Assembly (NCBI RefSeq): GCF_020667845.1
Contig: NZ_JAFMPQ010000016.1
Span: forward strand, 37,165 to 101,164
DNA length: 64,000 nt
Direction of reading: 5' to 3'
From: Cognatishimia sp. F0-27
GTDB lineage: Bacteria > Pseudomonadota > Alphaproteobacteria > Rhodobacterales > Rhodobacteraceae
The number at the start of each line of letters is the position of its first letter. Within the stretch, counting starts at the first letter, position 1. Position numbers and translations under genes: made by a program. Under the pieces are notes generated by a model. That model saw only the letters and a list, made by a program, of their open reading frames with translations, searched no databases and was not told where the DNA came from. Shown here in pieces: positions 35,761 to 41,918 of the stretch.

Positions 35761-37278
35761 TCAATCGCCATCCGCCACACCGCTCTTGCGCGCCCGCGCT
35801 CTCCGGGCCCGGTAACTCGGCACGATGACCAAAAGCGCGGCAATCACCAGAAGCCCGAGCGTCATCGGCCGGTCCAGGATAAAGCCGACCCCGTCATAGA
35901 GCTGCATCGACCGAGAGAAATTGTCTTCCAGCATGCGCCCGAGGATGAACCCGATCAGAAGCGGCGCGAGCGGGTAATCGGCAAAGCGCAGCACCGTCGC
36001 ACAGACCCCGAGCCCGACGAGGATCAACAGCTCCGTGGCATTGTTCTGCCCGATATAGCTGCCCATCAGCGTGAAGAAGAGGATGAACGGAATAAGATAG
36101 GTGCGCGGGATCGTCAGCACCTTTGCGATATACGGAATCAACGGCAGATTGAGGATCAACAGGACAAGATTGCCAATGAACATCGACATGATCACCGCCC
36201 AGAACACATCCGGGCTGTCGACCATCAGGCGCGGGCCGGGTGTCACATTGAGTGCGATGAGCGCACCAAGCAGGATCGCCGTGGTGCCCGACCCCGGAAT
36301 ACCCAAGGTCAGAAGCGGAACGAAAGACCCGGTGCAGGCCGCATTGTTGGCAGTTTCAGGCGCCGCCAGCCCCTTGATGGAGCCCTTGCCAAACTGTTTC
36401 TGCTCTTCCTCGGACGCGATGTTGCGCTCAACCGCATAGCCGAGGAAGGACGCAATCGTGGCGCCGGCCCCCGGCAACACGCCGATGAAGAACCCCTGCA
36501 CCGATTGCCGGCCGATCACCGGCGCGATGCTCCTGGCTTCCGCCCGGGTGATCCGCAGGTTTTCGATCTTGCCCGAACCGGCGCCTTGCGCCCCGCGGGC
36601 CGGGTTCATCACGAGAAAGATCGCCTCGGGCAGCGCAAACATCGCCATCGCAAGCGTGATGAAGCTGAAACCCGATTGCAGGTCCATCAGACCCATGGTG
36701 AAGCGCGGCATGTTGAAGAGCGCCCCTTCACCCACCGTTGCCATGATCAGCCCAAGCAGCGTCATCAAGACCGCCTTGGCGACATTCCCGGTGCCGGCAA
36801 AGGCCGCAATCGCTGAAAGCCCCACAACCATCAGCGCGAAATACTCCGCCGAATGGAACAACAGCGCGATCGTCGACAGCATCGGCGCGAAGATCATCAA
36901 CAACACGGCGCCAAGCGTGCCACCCGCAAAGCTCGCGATGGCGGCGATCGTCAGCGCCTTGCCGGCCTTGCCGTCACGCGCCATCGGGTATCCGTCGAAA
37001 CTGGTCGCAACCGTGCCCGCAACCCCCGGCGCGTTGAGCAGGATCGACGAGGTCGATCCCCCGAAGATCGCGCCGTAATAGACCCCCGCAAGAAGGATCA
37101 ATGCAGCCGACGGATCGCCCAGCGTGATCGCCACGGGGATCATGATAGCAATGATCGACATCGGCCCGAGTCCCGGCAACATCCCGATGAATGTGCCGAT
37201 CAGACAGCCGCCGATGACCATGGCGAGGTTCGTCAGAGAGAGCGCGGTCGTCAGACCGATCAGCAGCCCTTCAAGCAT
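35761..37278 (-). CDS. tctA: Tripartite tricarboxylate transporter, large permease TctA
   Basis: A 505-residue, roughly twelve-helix membrane subunit. The conserved segments GCLIGTFIGMLPGLGPMSIIA, YYGAIFGGSTSSILLNAPG and the repeated LPGAGATIASFLGYAVER / FVPLLTLGIPGSGTTAILLGAL are diagnostic for TctA. With TctB and the periplasmic TctC it takes up a carboxylate; family members transport citrate, tartrate or aromatic acids. It is the third gene of the leftward tctC-tctB-tctA operon. Confidence 0.95.
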   Translation of the reverse strand: MLEGLLIGLTTALSLTNLAMVIGGCLIGTFIGMLPGLGPMSIIAIMIPVAITLGDPSAALILLAGVYYGAIFGGSTSSILLNAPGVAGTVATSFDGYPMARDGKAGKALTIAAIASFAGGTLGAVLLMIFAPMLSTIALLFHSAEYFALMVVGLSAIAAFAGTGNVAKAVLMTLLGLIMATVGEGALFNMPRFTMGLMDLQSGFSFITLAMAMFALPEAIFLVMNPARGAQGAGSGKIENLRITRAEARSIAPVIGRQSVQGFFIGVLPGAGATIASFLGYAVERNIASEEEQKQFGKGSIKGLAAPETANNAACTGSFVPLLTLGIPGSGTTAILLGALIALNVTPGPRLMVDSPDVFWAVIMSMFIGNLVLLILNLPLIPYIAKVLTIPRTYLIPFILFFTLMGSYIGQNNATELLILVGLGVCATVLRFADYPLAPLLIGFILGRMLEDNFSRSMQLYDGVGFILDRPMTLGLLVIAALLVIVPSYRARRARARKSGVADGD

Positions 37279-37290
37279 GGTATCTCTCCC

Positions 37291-37776
37291 TCACCCCAGA
37301 AAAAACGGCAACGGGCGCAGGAAAATTCCAAGCACCCCCTCGACCAGATACCAGACAATCCCGGTCGCCAGAGCGGCAACGGGAAGCAGGATATGCACCT
37401 TGCGCTCGCCAAGGATCATCGCTCCGATGGCCAGAAACCCGACCGTGGAAATCAGGAACCCGGCCGGCCTGAGCATGAGCGCGTACAACACCATCAAACC
37501 GAGCAACAATCCCGCCTGCCCGATCTTGTATTGGCCGAGCTTGCGATAATCGATATCGGGCTCCTTCTGGTCACCGGACGGTTTTTCGATCCCCAGAAGG
37601 ATGATCAACGCGGTGATGATCGCCAGAACCGACAGCACCTTCGGAAAGGTCGACGGCCAGACAGGATTGCGTTGCATGAAGGGCGGTAACAGGTCGTCCA
37701 TGGTGAAATAGGCCGCGTAGCCATAAGCCAACGCGATCCCGAGAATGATCAACGCGATCCAGCGATCCAGCGCCAT
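37291..37776 (-). CDS. tctB: Tripartite tricarboxylate transporter, small permease TctB
   Basis: A 161-residue membrane protein with about four helices. MALDRWIALIILGIALAYGY is the first; MQRNPVWPSTFPKVLSVLAII is the TctB signature; the last two helices flank a short loop (GERKVHILLPVAAL). Partner of TctA, which starts 12 bp downstream. The 243-bp gap from tctC upstream is unusually long for this operon type and carries copy 3 of the dispersed repeat. Confidence 0.9.
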   Translation of the reverse strand: MALDRWIALIILGIALAYGYAAYFTMDDLLPPFMQRNPVWPSTFPKVLSVLAIITALIILLGIEKPSGDQKEPDIDYRKLGQYKIGQAGLLLGLMVLYALMLRPAGFLISTVGFLAIGAMILGERKVHILLPVAALATGIVWYLVEGVLGIFLRPLPFFLG

Positions 37777-37919
37777 GTTGAATACCCCCCGTCTGCCGGT
37801 TGGCGCGTTGCGCGCCTACCGCCGCTTCTTGTTTGCGATCTTGCGTCCCCGGCATGGCGAAGACCCAAAGAACCCTGGGAATTTTATGCTTTTGGGTGCG
37901 GGTTTGACCCGCCGCTCCT

Positions 37920-37985
37920 GTTTCTTCTGTCCCGAAATACTCGGGGAGCGCGAGGGGCCACGCCCCTCGCACAATCCAAATTGTG
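37920..37985 (+). repeat. Dispersed repeat, copy 3 (core plus two hairpins) between tctC and tctB
   Basis: Core TTTCTTCTGTCC-C-GAAATACTC (37921-37942), then hairpin GCGAGGGG/CCCCTCGC (37950-37970) and hairpin CACAAT/ATTGTG (37970-37985). The layout parallels copy 1, but the orientation is opposite to the surrounding genes. Confidence 0.75.
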
Positions 37986-38019
37986 CGGCGTCAGCCGCTC
38001 AATTGGACGTCCCCATGCC

Positions 38020-39006
38020 TCACAGGAAGCCGAGTTCGCGCATCAGATCGCCAATGACCTTCTCCTGGTTTTCGAGAAAGCTTTGGAAATCCTCGCCGGA
38101 ATTGTGGATGTTGACCCAACCGTTGCGCGCACGCACGGCTTCCCATTCTTCGGTGTCATACATCTTCTCGATGGCCATCTGGTAGGCCGAGACCTTGTCT
38201 TCGGAAAGGCCCGGAGCGCCGAAGAAACCACGCCAGTTGACGAAGGTCGTATCGATGCCCTGCTCTTTCATCGTTGCCGCATCGGCAAAGGCATCCACGC
38301 GTTCATCTGACGTCACACCAAGGATCTTGACTTCGCCCTGCTCCGCAAGGGCCACCGCCTCGGAGAAACCGGTGGACAGAGCCTTGATCTCGCCAGACAG
38401 GAGTGCGGCCATCGCCTTACCGCCGGCATCGTAGGGGATGTACTTGACCGCGGTCGGGTCTTCACCCGCGGCTTTCATCACCATGGCCGCCACGAGATGG
38501 TCCATGCCGCCGGGAACGGAGCCGCCGCCGATCGCGGTATCGCCCGGGTTTTCCTGGTATGCGGCCAGCAGATCCGCCATCGAGTTGAGCGGGCTGTCGG
38601 CTGGCACCACCATCGCAGCATAGTCACCGATCGTTCCAGCAATCAGTGTCAGATCCCGGAAGTTGTGCGGAAACACACCCGTGAGCGAGCGAATGACGAT
38701 CGGCGTCGAATTCACCATCAACGTGCCTTCAAGGCTCTCGGCGTTTTCGATCATGTAGCCGATGGCCTTGCCGCCGCCACCGCCGGACATGTTTTCGTAG
38801 CTCGCCGAACCGACGAGACCCGCATTGGTCAGGGCCTCACCCGTGCCGCGTGCGGTCCCGTCCCATCCGCCACCGGCCCCGCCGGGGATCAGGAAATGCA
38901 CAGAATCGAGCACTTGATGCCCGCCCGCATAAAGCGGCGCGCCCACCAGGGAAGCCGCTGCTACGGCCGCCATCAACGCCCGGCGGCCAAACGTCGTTTT
39001 CATCAT
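38020..39006 (-). CDS. tctC: Tripartite tricarboxylate transporter substrate-binding protein TctC
   Basis: About 328 residues. Start MMKTTFGRRALMAAVAAASL with GGAGGAAG upstream (either of two adjacent ATGs). Signal peptide cleaved around residue 26-27 (PLYAGG). The body is of the Bug/TctC type: HFLIPGGAGGGWDGTARG near the N-terminus, then NMSGGGGGKAIGYMI, IAGTIGDYAAMVVPADSPLNSMADL and RGFFGAPGLSEDKV. The GWDGTARG form is typical of the TctC subgroup. The ligand is a carboxylate of unknown identity. First gene of the tct operon. Confidence 0.92.
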   Translation of the reverse strand: MMKTTFGRRALMAAVAAASLVGAPLYAGGHQVLDSVHFLIPGGAGGGWDGTARGTGEALTNAGLVGSASYENMSGGGGGKAIGYMIENAESLEGTLMVNSTPIVIRSLTGVFPHNFRDLTLIAGTIGDYAAMVVPADSPLNSMADLLAAYQENPGDTAIGGGSVPGGMDHLVAAMVMKAAGEDPTAVKYIPYDAGGKAMAALLSGEIKALSTGFSEAVALAEQGEVKILGVTSDERVDAFADAATMKEQGIDTTFVNWRGFFGAPGLSEDKVSAYQMAIEKMYDTEEWEAVRARNGWVNIHNSGEDFQSFLENQEKVIGDLMRELGFL

Positions 39007-39239
39007 GGATCTTCCTCCCAAAAGACAGGGCCATCGTCGCGTGACCCCTATCGGCGATTACCCTTGCAGAAACAGTTCTGCGAAACAAGCATTTTACGCG
39101 CGCAAAGTTTATGGCCTCCGCGACCATGCGGATTTGAGTGGGCAGCGCGGTGCCTGACGCGCGGGAGCTCCCGACCGGGTGCGGCGACCGCCCTCAAATC
39201 GAGGCACCTGCCTTCCGGGCTTGCCAATGGCACAAAACA

Positions 39240-39254
39240 GAACATACAGTGAAC
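39240..39254 (+). promoter_or_regulatory. LexA (SOS) box, GAAC-N7-GAAC
   Basis: GAAC-ATACAGT-GAAC is a perfect match to the direct-repeat SOS box of alphaproteobacteria. It ends two bases before the ATG of the radical SAM gene. A TTGCCA at 39221-39226 could be the -35, so LexA would cover the -10/start region and the mRNA may be leaderless. Confidence 0.75.
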
Positions 39255-39256
39255 AA

Positions 39257-40492
39257 ATGGCAAAGATCACATTGCAAAGAAAATTGGAAATTCTCGCGGA
39301 TGCGGCGAAATACGATGCATCCTGCGCGTCTTCGGGCACCACGCGGCGCGACAGCGGCGATGGCAAGGGGCTCGGCTCGACCACGGGATCGGGCATCTGC
39401 CACAGCTATGCACCGGATGGGCGCTGCATTTCACTGCTCAAGATCCTGATGACCAATTTCTGTATTTACGATTGCGCGTTCTGCATCAACCGTGCCTCTT
39501 CCGGTGTCGAACGGGCACGTTTCACGCCAGAAGAGGTGGTTTATCTGACCACCGAATTTTATCGCCGCAACTATATAGAAGGGCTTTTTCTGTCCTCCGG
39601 CATCATCCGTTCACCGGACGCCACCATGGAGGACATGAACCGCATTGCCCGCAGCCTGCGGGTTGATCATGACTTTCGCGGCTACATCCATCTCAAGACG
39701 ATCCCGGACGCATCACCCGAACTCATCGCCGAAGCCGGGCGGCTGGCGGACCGGATCTCGATCAATATCGAACTGCCGACCGACCAGGGGGTGGCCCGCT
39801 ACGCACCGGAGAAGAACCCCGCGACGATTCGGCAGGCCATGGCGGGCGTGCGAGAACGCCGGTCGGCTGCGCGCGAGCGCTCTCACAAGGGCAAACGCCC
39901 GCCGCGGTTCGCCCCGGCCGGACAATCGACCCAGATGATCGTCGGGGCCGACGGAGCAGATGATCGCACGATCCTTGGCACATCGACCAAGCTGTATGGC
40001 GACTATCGTCTCAAGCGGGTCTATTACTCCGCATTCTCGCCGATCCCGGATGCCTCCCGGACGCTGCCGCTTGCCGCCCCCCCGCTGCTGCGGGAACACA
40101 GGCTGTATCAAGCGGATTGGCTGATGCGGTTTTATGGCTTTGAGGCCACTGAAATCGCACCCCCCGATCTGTCAGGCATGCTGGATCTCGATCTTGACCC
40201 CAAGCTCGCCTGGGCCTTGCGCAACAGGGCCGCTTTCCCCGTCGATGTGAACAGCGCCACGCGCGAAGCGCTTCTTCGGGTTCCGGGCTTTGGCACCAAG
40301 ACGGTAGACAGGATCCTGTCCGCCCGGCGGAACGGGCGCTTGGGCTATGGCGATCTGCTGCGGATCGGCGCGCGCCTGAAACACGCCGAGCCATTTTTCA
40401 CCGCGCGCGACTGGTCGCCCGGCGGGCTGACGGACGCGGCCCACCTTGCCGACCGATACGCGCCAAAACCCACGCAACTGTCGCTTTTCTGA
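39257..40492 (+). CDS. Putative DNA modification/repair radical SAM protein with clamp-binding tail
   Basis: A 411-residue radical SAM enzyme. The cluster motif is CIYDCAFC (Cys69, Cys73, Cys76; CX3CX2C), preceded by DGRCISLLKILMTNF and followed by LSSGIIRSPDATMEDM and ISINIELPTDQGV. A helix-hairpin-helix DNA-binding motif (VDVNSATREALLRVPGFGTK, about 329-348) lies near the end. The last five residues are QLSLF, matching the sliding-clamp-binding consensus QL[S/D]LF. This family is known to sit beside UDG-family genes, as here (gap 7 bp). The upstream frame is open to 39179, but the ATG at 39257 directly follows a LexA box and starts the conserved region. The reaction is unknown; a role in damaged DNA is inferred from the partner, HhH, tail and SOS box. 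Confidence 0.88.
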   Translation: MAKITLQRKLEILADAAKYDASCASSGTTRRDSGDGKGLGSTTGSGICHSYAPDGRCISLLKILMTNFCIYDCAFCINRASSGVERARFTPEEVVYLTTEFYRRNYIEGLFLSSGIIRSPDATMEDMNRIARSLRVDHDFRGYIHLKTIPDASPELIAEAGRLADRISINIELPTDQGVARYAPEKNPATIRQAMAGVRERRSAARERSHKGKRPPRFAPAGQSTQMIVGADGADDRTILGTSTKLYGDYRLKRVYYSAFSPIPDASRTLPLAAPPLLREHRLYQADWLMRFYGFEATEIAPPDLSGMLDLDLDPKLAWALRNRAAFPVDVNSATREALLRVPGFGTKTVDRILSARRNGRLGYGDLLRIGARLKHAEPFFTARDWSPGGLTDAAHLADRYAPKPTQLSLF

Positions 40493-40499
40493 GGTCGCA

Positions 40500-41918
40500 A
40501 TGATCGCCGTCCGTCTCCCCCGCACAGGTCTCTGGCCAGCGTTCCGCGACACGGCGCGCCGGCTTCTTGGCGCTCGGATCACGCCTGACATGATCGACTG
40601 GGACGTCGAAGGCGTGCCAACCGGGCTTTTTGCCGATCCGGTCCCGGACGCCAAAGGCGCCGCAATGACCCTCAAACGCAGCCTTGCCGGCTTGCTCACG
40701 GATCTCACGGCCGTGCGCGGTCCTGAAGGACTGAGCCTGGCCTACAGATTGCTGTGGCGCGCCCACACAGGCCGGCTCGCTCTCGAAGATCGCGCCGATC
40801 CCGACATCGCCCGTGCCCGTGTGCTTGCAAAGTCGGTGCACCGGGACTTGCACAAAATGCACGCGTTCGTGCGCTTCAAGGAGGTGACGCCCCATGGGAC
40901 GCGCCGACGGTTCACCGCGTGGTTCGAACCGGATCATCGCATCGAGGACGCGGCCGCGCCGTTCTTTGCCAAACGCTTCGGCGACATGGACTGGATCATC
41001 CGCACGCCAGAGGTCACGATCAGCTTTACGCAAGGCGTGACCCGCATCACCTCCCAGATCAACACCCGGGAAATCACGGACGATGCGCTCGAAGCGCTTT
41101 GGTGCAGTTATTACAGCCACATCTTCAACCCGGCCCGACTGAAGGTCGCCGCGATGACGTCTGAAATGCCCCGCAAATATTGGCGCAACCTGCCCGAGGC
41201 GGGACTGATTCCCGGGCTGATCGCCGAGGCTTCGGCACGGCGGGACGCGATGATTTCCCAAGGCGCCCTCCCGGCTTCAAGAGAAGCGGCGGTGACGTCG
41301 CTCGACGCCTTGCCCGCAGCCCTTGCTGCATGCGAGCGCTGCACAATCGGCTGTCACGCAACGCGTGCCGTGACAGGGTCCGGCCCGGCCAATGCGCCGT
41401 TGATGATCGTCGGCGAGCAACCCGGAGACGTGGAAGATCGCGCCGGCGTGCCTTTCGTCGGTCCGGCAGGCGCCGTTCTCGACACCGCCTTGCAGGAAGC
41501 CGACATTGGCCGCGACGGGGTATATCTCACGAACGCGGTGAAGCATTTCAAATTTACCCGGCGGGGAACGCGCCGCATCCACCAGCGCCCTGACCGCTCA
41601 GAGGTCGAAGCCTGCCGCTGGTGGCTCGACCACGAACGAACCTTCGTCAAGCCGCGCCTCATCATCGCTCTCGGTGCGACCGCCGCGCTCGCGTTGACCG
41701 GCAACGGAAACAGGATCCGCGACAGGCGCGGCACAATCGAATGCGACAGCGACGGCAGGCCGGTGCTTCTCACAGTGCACCCGTCCTCCATCCTGCGTCA
41801 GCCCGACCCTGCCAGCAGGATCTACGAAGCGCGCAGGTTCGCCGCGGACCTGCGCAACGCGCGGGAGTTTCTGGCCAAGACGGGCGCGCCGCCGGTGCAA
41901 TCCATAAGCCCGGTGTAA
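40500..41918 (+). CDS. DUF4130 - UdgX uracil-DNA glycosylase fusion protein
   Basis: 472 residues in two parts. Residues about 75-245 are the DUF4130 domain (HKMHAFVRFKEV, HTG-rich and FNPARLKVAAM segments). Residues about 270-460 are a UDG-superfamily domain of the UdgX type: Cys278 and Cys281 of the Fe-S site, GEQPGDVEDRAGVPFVGPAG (305-324), TNAVKHFKF, the RRIH loop (358-361) and HPSSILR (427-433). In mycobacterial UdgX the His of the KRRIH loop forms a covalent bond to the abasic sugar after uracil removal; His361 is the equivalent. ATG at 40500 follows the radical SAM stop by 7 bp, so both genes share the SOS promoter. Confidence 0.9.
   Translation: MIAVRLPRTGLWPAFRDTARRLLGARITPDMIDWDVEGVPTGLFADPVPDAKGAAMTLKRSLAGLLTDLTAVRGPEGLSLAYRLLWRAHTGRLALEDRADPDIARARVLAKSVHRDLHKMHAFVRFKEVTPHGTRRRFTAWFEPDHRIEDAAAPFFAKRFGDMDWIIRTPEVTISFTQGVTRITSQINTREITDDALEALWCSYYSHIFNPARLKVAAMTSEMPRKYWRNLPEAGLIPGLIAEASARRDAMISQGALPASREAAVTSLDALPAALAACERCTIGCHATRAVTGSGPANAPLMIVGEQPGDVEDRAGVPFVGPAGAVLDTALQEADIGRDGVYLTNAVKHFKFTRRGTRRIHQRPDRSEVEACRWWLDHERTFVKPRLIIALGATAALALTGNGNRIRDRRGTIECDSDGRPVLLTVHPSSILRQPDPASRIYEARRFAADLRNAREFLAKTGAPPVQSISPV

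What the first reader, a model, noticed from the sequence alone, without database searches (positions are those of the whole stretch)
39240..41918. SOS-controlled radical SAM / UdgX repair module
A perfect alphaproteobacterial LexA box (GAAC-N7-GAAC) ends two bases before a radical SAM gene, which is followed after 7 bp by a DUF4130-UdgX fusion. The pairing of these families is known, but the radical SAM enzyme's reaction is not. LexA control would place the pair in the DNA-damage response and suggests the radical SAM enzyme processes the covalent UdgX-DNA adduct or a modified base. Seen: box, motifs, spacing. Known: family pairing and the UdgX crosslink. Inferred: joint function.
Basis: partly seen in the sequence, partly recalled or inferred. 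Interest (0 to 1): 0.85.

Follow-up and report, generated by a model that had tools for sequence, protein, structure and literature searches.

The report
Damage-induced, clamp-docked radical-SAM repair pair
This bacterial gene pair carries a sequence matching the LexA DNA-damage switch, conserved in its relatives, and its radical-SAM enzyme ends in a motif predicted to dock on the replication clamp, so it likely mends damaged DNA at stalled forks, while the UdgX part (predicted to trap uracil-damaged sites) is an extra that many relatives lack.

Summary
In detail: GAACATACAGTGAAC ends two bases before a TIGR03916 radical-SAM (rSAM) gene, followed after 7 bp by a DUF4130-UdgX fusion. The motif alone is not enriched, but its place is conserved: 32 of 33 alpha relatives, 22 of 22 more. 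Other clades carry their own LexA box there (Bacillota 24 of 54, beta 2 of 2). SOS control of this operon type is already in print (PMC8565304).

UdgX is an accessory. In 249 Pseudomonadota genomes rSAM goes with DUF4130 in 39 of 39, but 10 of 39 lack UdgX and 9 of 38 UdgX genomes lack rSAM. Two relatives of the window's family lack UdgX yet keep rSAM, DUF4130 and box. Adduct removal is therefore an unlikely core function.

New leads: a C-terminal beta-clamp motif (published consensus in 73 of 114 tails against 9 of 661 other open frames) and a second three-cysteine set (109 of 114), predicted to hold an auxiliary Fe-S cluster. Likely an SOS-induced, clamp-tethered DNA-base repair enzyme; its reaction is unknown.

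The parts
39221..39226 (+). predicted -35 element TTGCCA; TTG starts 19 nt before the box
   Evidence: TTG lies 16-19 nt before the box in 22 of 29 alpha loci with a GAAC-type box, shuffle mean 1.5, max 8 of 2000; consensus match only, no transcript data
39240..39254 (+). LexA-type box GAAC-N7-GAAC; box positions 6-11 (TACAGT, 39245-39250) read as the -10 element, so a leaderless transcript is predicted
39257..40492 (+). radical-SAM gene, TIGR03916 (411 aa)
   Evidence: start supported by relatives
39323..39427 (+). N-terminal cysteine triad C23, C48, C57 (codons 39323, 39398, 39425): predicted ligands of an auxiliary Fe-S cluster
   Evidence: all three present in 109 of 114 sequences, all absent in 4, one lacks the first at that column
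39461..39484 (+). radical-SAM cluster motif CX3CX2C (C69, C73, C76)
   Evidence: 114 of 114; PF04055
40196..40336 (+). helix-hairpin-helix region (residues 314-360), predicted DNA binding
   Evidence: PF12836 E 1e-4 and PF14520 E 6e-4, both under the curated cut-off; weak RuvA similarity, E 0.03
40475..40489 (+). C-terminal QLSLF (residues 407-411), predicted beta-clamp-binding motif
   Evidence: consensus from PMC13254535
40500..41918 (+). DUF4130-UdgX fusion gene (472 aa)
40527..41201 (+). DUF4130 / TIGR03915 domain, core partner of the rSAM protein
   Evidence: pairing
41205..41858 (+). UdgX / TIGR03914 domain
41568..41582 (+). UdgX R-loop TRRIH with the cross-linking His (codon 41580-41582)
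   Evidence: Thr where the other RRxH-type proteins examined have Lys or Arg

Best explanation
This is a radical-SAM/DUF4130 gene pair under a conserved LexA-type box, likely switched on by DNA damage, whose radical-SAM enzyme ends in a motif predicted to bind the replication clamp and is likely a repair enzyme that rewrites a damaged base in place at stalled forks. Shown by sequence: the box and its conservation; the pair as the constant core; UdgX as an accessory; the QLSLF tail; the six cysteines in two conserved sets of three. Inferred: damage takes LexA off the box, which covers the predicted -10 element; the rSAM protein is recruited to DnaN by its tail and to DNA by its helix-hairpin-helix region; one Fe-S cluster cleaves SAM and a second, three-cysteine cluster holds the substrate or a co-substrate, as in TYW1, MiaB, RimO or LipA; DUF4130 binds the lesion or DNA; in alpha/beta-type members UdgX adds capture of uracil/abasic sites at the same place. 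The chemistry and the lesion are not known.
Against: No expression, binding or enzyme data. Exact clade boxes were missing in 30 of 54 Bacillota (17 of 54 with neither exact box nor the one-letter variants tried), 6 of 8 Bacteroidota, 1 of 3 Coriobacteriia, 3 of 3 Desulfobacterota, 3 of 3 Moraxellaceae, 4 of 4 Gemmatimonadota and 3 of 3 other loci, and in L148 and L162. 41 of 114 rSAM tails miss the published clamp consensus; 34 of these have near-variants such as QLSLI, QLGFW or QMSLF, which is my own loosening. The model has pLDDT under 50 at residues 24-34, 36-45 and 406-411, so neither the auxiliary cluster nor the tail is seen in three dimensions. Helix-hairpin-helix scores lie under the curated cut-offs. 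Nothing shows that the substrate is DNA.
Confidence: 0.55

Rival explanations
1. The radical-SAM enzyme removes or remodels the covalent UdgX-DNA adduct.
For: Tight operon and fusion in alpha/beta-type members; the cross-linking His is kept in the fused UdgX proteins examined.
Against: 38 of 48 rSAM-bearing genomes searched have no UdgX over the cut-off; 10 of 39 in Pseudomonadota; UdgX without rSAM in 9 of 38 (one of these, G363, has DUF4130-UdgX near a contig end, so rSAM may be missing from the assembly only); L150 and L151 lack UdgX and keep the rest with the box; the UdgX-fused rows of the tree are one side of a branch.
Confidence: 0.06
2. It is a spore-photoproduct-lyase-like enzyme that splits a UV dimer or other cross-link, as the label 'SplB-like radical SAM photolyase' in the literature suggests.
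For: PMC3765255 and PMC8565304 link SplB-like proteins with SOS genes; DNA-repair context.
Against: No SPL model or SPL chain found by sequence; this protein has only six cysteines, all in the two conserved sets, leaving none for the H-donor Cys of SPL (recalled). SPL was not among the 50 fold rows shown, which is inconclusive.
Confidence: 0.15
3. It aids damage tolerance instead of repair: it alters template bases or factors at the clamp so that translesion polymerases can pass (the 'mutagenesis-related' reading of PMC3765255).
For: The same kind of box stands before an error-prone DnaE gene and a Y-family polymerase-like gene of this genome; clamp motif.
Against: No fixed genetic link to TLS genes was tested; no mutation data.
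Confidence: 0.12
4. The enzyme modifies a protein at the fork (for example DnaN or DUF4130) or a small molecule, not DNA.
For: The auxiliary-cluster class includes protein modifiers such as RimO and LipA (PMC5352715).
Against: Weak helix-hairpin-helix matches and the DNA-repair context point to DNA.
Confidence: 0.12

Closest known systems
SOS-regulated COG1573-COG4277 'UDG base-excision' operon (PMC8565304, passages; Verrucomicrobia and Caulobacter papers cited there, not seen)
   Same: A UDG-family gene with COG4277 (that COG4277 is TIGR03916 is recalled) under SOS control in Bacteroidetes; a UDG-based repair system under SOS control is cited for Verrucomicrobia and Alphaproteobacteria
   Different: That paper treats the UDG as the active part; here rSAM-DUF4130 is the constant core and UdgX is often missing
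UdgX (M. smegmatis)
   Same: 48% identity over 197 aligned residues; GEQPG, R-loop His, HPSSILR
   Different: Fused behind DUF4130; R-loop TRRIH in place of KRRIH
Radical-SAM enzymes with a three-Cys auxiliary cluster (TYW1, MiaB, RimO, LipA; PMC5352715)
   Same: Three extra conserved cysteines N-terminal of CX3CX2C; nearest folds include lipoyl synthase
   Different: Spacing CX24CX8C, a helix-hairpin-helix region and a clamp-type motif at the C terminus; function unknown
Spore photoproduct lyase (SplB)
   Same: Radical SAM; SOS association in the literature
   Different: No sequence match found; no spare cysteine
Clamp-binding repair proteins (RecB, translesion polymerases)
   Same: Canonical QL[S/D]LF motif (PMC13254535)
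   Different: I found no report for a radical-SAM enzyme in the searches

Membership tests
TIGR03916/TIGR03915/TIGR03914 module | Curated score cut-offs for the three families | tested here: met
   566.4/343.5, 165.9/112.25, 276.8/189.95 bits
Alphaproteobacterial LexA regulon | GAAC-N7-GAAC at the promoter, conserved in orthologues | tested here: met
Alphaproteobacterial LexA regulon | A lexA gene with the same box in the genome | tested here: met
   lexA C47:12056-12748, box C47:11969-11983
Alphaproteobacterial LexA regulon | LexA binding and induction by DNA damage | not testable with these tools
   needs EMSA and expression data
UdgX | GEQPG, R-loop KRRIH with its His, HPS(S/A)(L/V)(L/V)R | tested here: met
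   GEQPG, TRRIH (Lys replaced, His kept), HPSSILR (Ile at one L/V position); motif list from the start of the abstract of PMC10359453
UdgX | Covalent cross-link to DNA after uracil excision | not testable with these tools
   biochemical
Spore photoproduct lyase | Sequence match to an SPL family or solved SPL | tested here: not met
   no SPL family in NCBIfam at E 1e-3, no SPL chain in PDB at E 1
Spore photoproduct lyase | SPL fold | tested here: inconclusive
   not among the rows shown
Radical SAM with three-Cys auxiliary cluster | Three conserved cysteines besides CX3CX2C | tested here: met
   109 of 114
Radical SAM with three-Cys auxiliary cluster | A second [4Fe-4S] cluster present | not testable with these tools
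   needs spectroscopy
Beta-clamp clients | QL[S/D]LF or Q-phi-x-[L/M]-[F/L] in an exposed tail | tested here: met
   QLSLF at 407-411, in a stretch of pLDDT under 50; 41 of 114 relatives miss the published consensus
Beta-clamp clients | Binding to DnaN | not testable with these tools
   needs pull-down or NMR
Anti-phage defence system | Match to a PADLOC model | tested here: not met
   0 families for both proteins at E 1

The most novel reading that the evidence does not exclude
TIGR03916 proteins are a widespread new class of in-place DNA repair enzyme: SOS-induced, two-cluster radical-SAM enzymes that ride the beta clamp through a QLSLF tail and rewrite a fork-blocking base, with DUF4130 as lesion reader and UdgX as an added abasic-site trap in alpha/beta-proteobacterial members.
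Probability: 0.35. Interest if true: 0.9.

Novelty: new member of a known kind. Interest (0 to 1): 0.6.

Why it matters
The operon type and its SOS control are known, but I found no report of what the radical-SAM enzyme does. Showing that UdgX is dispensable removes the obvious hypothesis, and the clamp motif plus the second cysteine set give two cheap, decisive tests (DnaN binding; two Fe-S clusters) for a likely repair enzyme found here from Bacillota to Pseudomonadota.

Tried and rejected
Box by itself as evidence: rejected, not enriched in window or genome. Start at 39227: rejected, most relatives start at the place of 39257. Defence system: no PADLOC hit. Phage gene: 10 phage records matched; of the two Acinetobacter records the one opened has glyS/glyQ beside the gene and looks like host DNA, and the three faecal scaffolds opened are unannotated. 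Clamp motif in the partner protein: 0 of 104 tails. SPL was not among the fold rows shown. Papers searched for terms, with no passage on this operon: PMC13384398 (no term found), PMC6473078 (LexA passages only), PMC4234289 (no 'radical SAM' or 'uracil'). Listings: UdgX with radical SAM 0 papers, UdgX with SOS response 0, family names 2 papers, two of three clamp/radical-SAM terms 41 papers of which 10 were listed, none holding 'radical SAM', radical SAM with sliding clamp 9 papers, none related by title or abstract start (not opened).

Rows and limits: L031 and L127 (fragments), L126 (same contig as L032), L027 (the window itself) and L058 (copy of L053) were left out of the sets; the window protein was added. 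Groups were set by hand: L032 (viral-collection contig) was counted as Alpha, L035 (faecal scaffold) as Bacteroidota, and L034, L036 (faecal scaffolds) and L098 (uncultured bacterium) as Bacillota. One search was given 50 of 80 loci; L100 and L118 were not held, so 48 were searched. The 80 loci are the best of a capped list, so shares across phyla are not frequencies. The tree used 63 of 114 sequences by a quick method with 20 open forks, 4 rows in no group, long branches and an unsure root. L148-L174 are the 30 best loci less three already held, out of 39.

Full report
Observation. The box GAACATACAGTGAAC lies at 39240-39254 and the rSAM gene starts at 39257; the second gene starts at 40500 after 7 bp. 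Family scans give TIGR03916 for the first protein, and TIGR03915 (DUF4130) plus TIGR03914 (UdgX) for the second, all over their cut-offs. The pattern is common by chance: 4 in the window against 2.12 expected, 117 in the genome against 148 for the reversed pattern.

Conservation of the switch. In 120 genomes of the family, 21 hold the rSAM gene, and 20 of these 21, the window's own included, have the box at the start of the gene. With wider sampling, 32 of 33 alpha loci have it within 150 bp, 0.10 expected; L028 has a one-mismatch copy. A phylum sample added 22 of 22 alpha loci. Rate of the alpha pattern in the rest of the loci: 0.006 per 200 bp. Other clades show their own LexA box at this place: GAAC-N4-GTTC in 24 of 54 Bacillota (37 of 54 with one-letter variants) and 2 of 3 Coriobacteriia but 0 of 33 Alpha; CTGT-N8-ACAG in L040 and L114 (beta) and in L165, L168 and L174; CTAA-N5-TTAG in 2 of 8 Bacteroidota. 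Off-clade controls: the alpha box in 1 of 54 Bacillota, CTGT-N8-ACAG in 1 of 33 Alpha. There was no clade box in Desulfobacterota (0 of 3), Moraxellaceae (0 of 3; absence of lexA there is recalled), Gemmatimonadota (0 of 4), three other loci, L148 or L162. This genome's lexA, recA, uvrB and an error-prone DnaE gene (read in part) carry the box, as do a Y-family polymerase-like gene and a PdeM-like gene. Among the 33 alpha loci with a box, window included, the box ends 2 bp before the start codon in 17 and 3 bp before it in 4; TTG lies 16-19 nt upstream of it in 22 of the 29 with a GAAC-type box. This suggests a -35/-10 promoter with the -10 inside the box and a leaderless transcript (inferred).

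What is the core? In 113 loci with the rSAM gene, 104 hold DUF4130 within the fetched flank and 34 have UdgX fused. In 249 Pseudomonadota genomes rSAM passes its cut-off in 39, DUF4130 in 41, UdgX in 38: rSAM with DUF4130 in 39 of 39, rSAM without UdgX in 10 of 39, UdgX without rSAM in 9 of 38 (tally). Of these nine, G363 has its DUF4130-UdgX near a contig end, so rSAM may be missing from the assembly only; G380 has a fused but shortened DUF4130; G238 a broken one. Across phyla, 38 of 48 searched rSAM genomes have no UdgX over the cut-off; weaker matches there may be family-4 UDGs (inferred). UdgX-fused rows are one side of a branch on a quick tree (22 rows, 1 change, SH-aLRT 100). L150 and L151, of the window's own family, have DUF4130 proteins that end after the linker, no UdgX over the cut-off in the genome, and the box in place. 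So SOS control and the rSAM enzyme do not depend on UdgX.

Mechanistic signs. The rSAM protein ends in QLSLF. The published clamp consensus (PMC13254535, passages read) occurs in the last 60 residues of 73 of 114 rSAM proteins, against 4.7 (max 12) in 2000 shuffles, 0 of 104 partner tails and 9 of 661 other open frames of at least 250 aa; exact QL[SD]LF in 39 of 114 against 1 of 661. The other frames are mechanical, not curated genes. Of the 41 that miss it, 34 have near-variants by a looser pattern of mine. The protein has six cysteines: CX3CX2C (114 of 114) and C23-C48-C57 (all three in 109 of 114, none in four Gemmatimonadota that also lack a DUF4130 neighbour, the first missing at its column in L051). 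[quoted passage not shown] The model (pLDDT 86.6) is nearest in fold to lipoyl synthase and HydE, but the triad region is modelled with low confidence. The UdgX half matches M. smegmatis UdgX. Of 155 long partner proteins examined, 146 have RRxH at the R-loop; of the nine others, eight have a variant with the His and one (L117) is not a UdgX.

What is known. PMC8565304 (passages read) reports SOS regulation of a COG1573-COG4277 operon in Bacteroidetes and cites papers on Verrucomicrobia and Caulobacter for SOS control of a UDG-based repair system; those two were not held. PMC3765255 (passages) calls DUF4130 a predicted mutagenesis-related enzyme associated with SplB-like radical-SAM proteins and uracil glycosylases. 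The family pairing note in TIGRFAMs is recalled. I found no report of the clamp motif, the cysteine triad or the dispensability of UdgX in the searches; the library lacks most subscription journals.

Verdict. The locus is a member of a known, SOS-controlled operon type. The best reading is an SOS-induced, clamp-tethered, probably two-cluster radical-SAM enzyme that likely acts with DUF4130 on damaged DNA, with UdgX as an accessory.

Noticed in passing
41568-41582: The UdgX R-loop reads TRRIH; of 146 RRxH-type proteins examined this is the only one with Thr in place of Lys or Arg.
   Followed up: partly
L132:777-1454: A ligase-associated phosphoesterase gene (PdeM-like, TIGR04123) in the same genome starts at a GAAC-N7-GAAC box.
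   Followed up: no
L128:2-1228: A Y-family polymerase-like gene of the same genome (weak NCBIfam matches only) has GAACATAAAGTGAAC at its start, one letter from the rSAM box.
   Followed up: partly
L033: A record filed as Acinetobacter phage MD-2021a carries rSAM-DUF4130 beside glyS and glyQ and looks like bacterial chromosome.
   Followed up: no
L032:10001-11239: A viral-collection contig holds the rSAM gene with a LexA-type box 17 nt before its start but no DUF4130 in the stretch held.
   Followed up: no
L037, L046, L047, L048: Divergent Gemmatimonadota rSAM proteins lack the cysteine triad, a DUF4130 neighbour in the held flank and a box, and carry QLGFW or QLSLW near the C terminus.
   Followed up: partly
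plasmids collection: 158 plasmid records hold the rSAM gene, 58 of them Phaeobacter.
   Followed up: no
35761-39021: Minus-strand genes upstream look like a tripartite tricarboxylate transporter (from the translations; name recalled).
   Followed up: no
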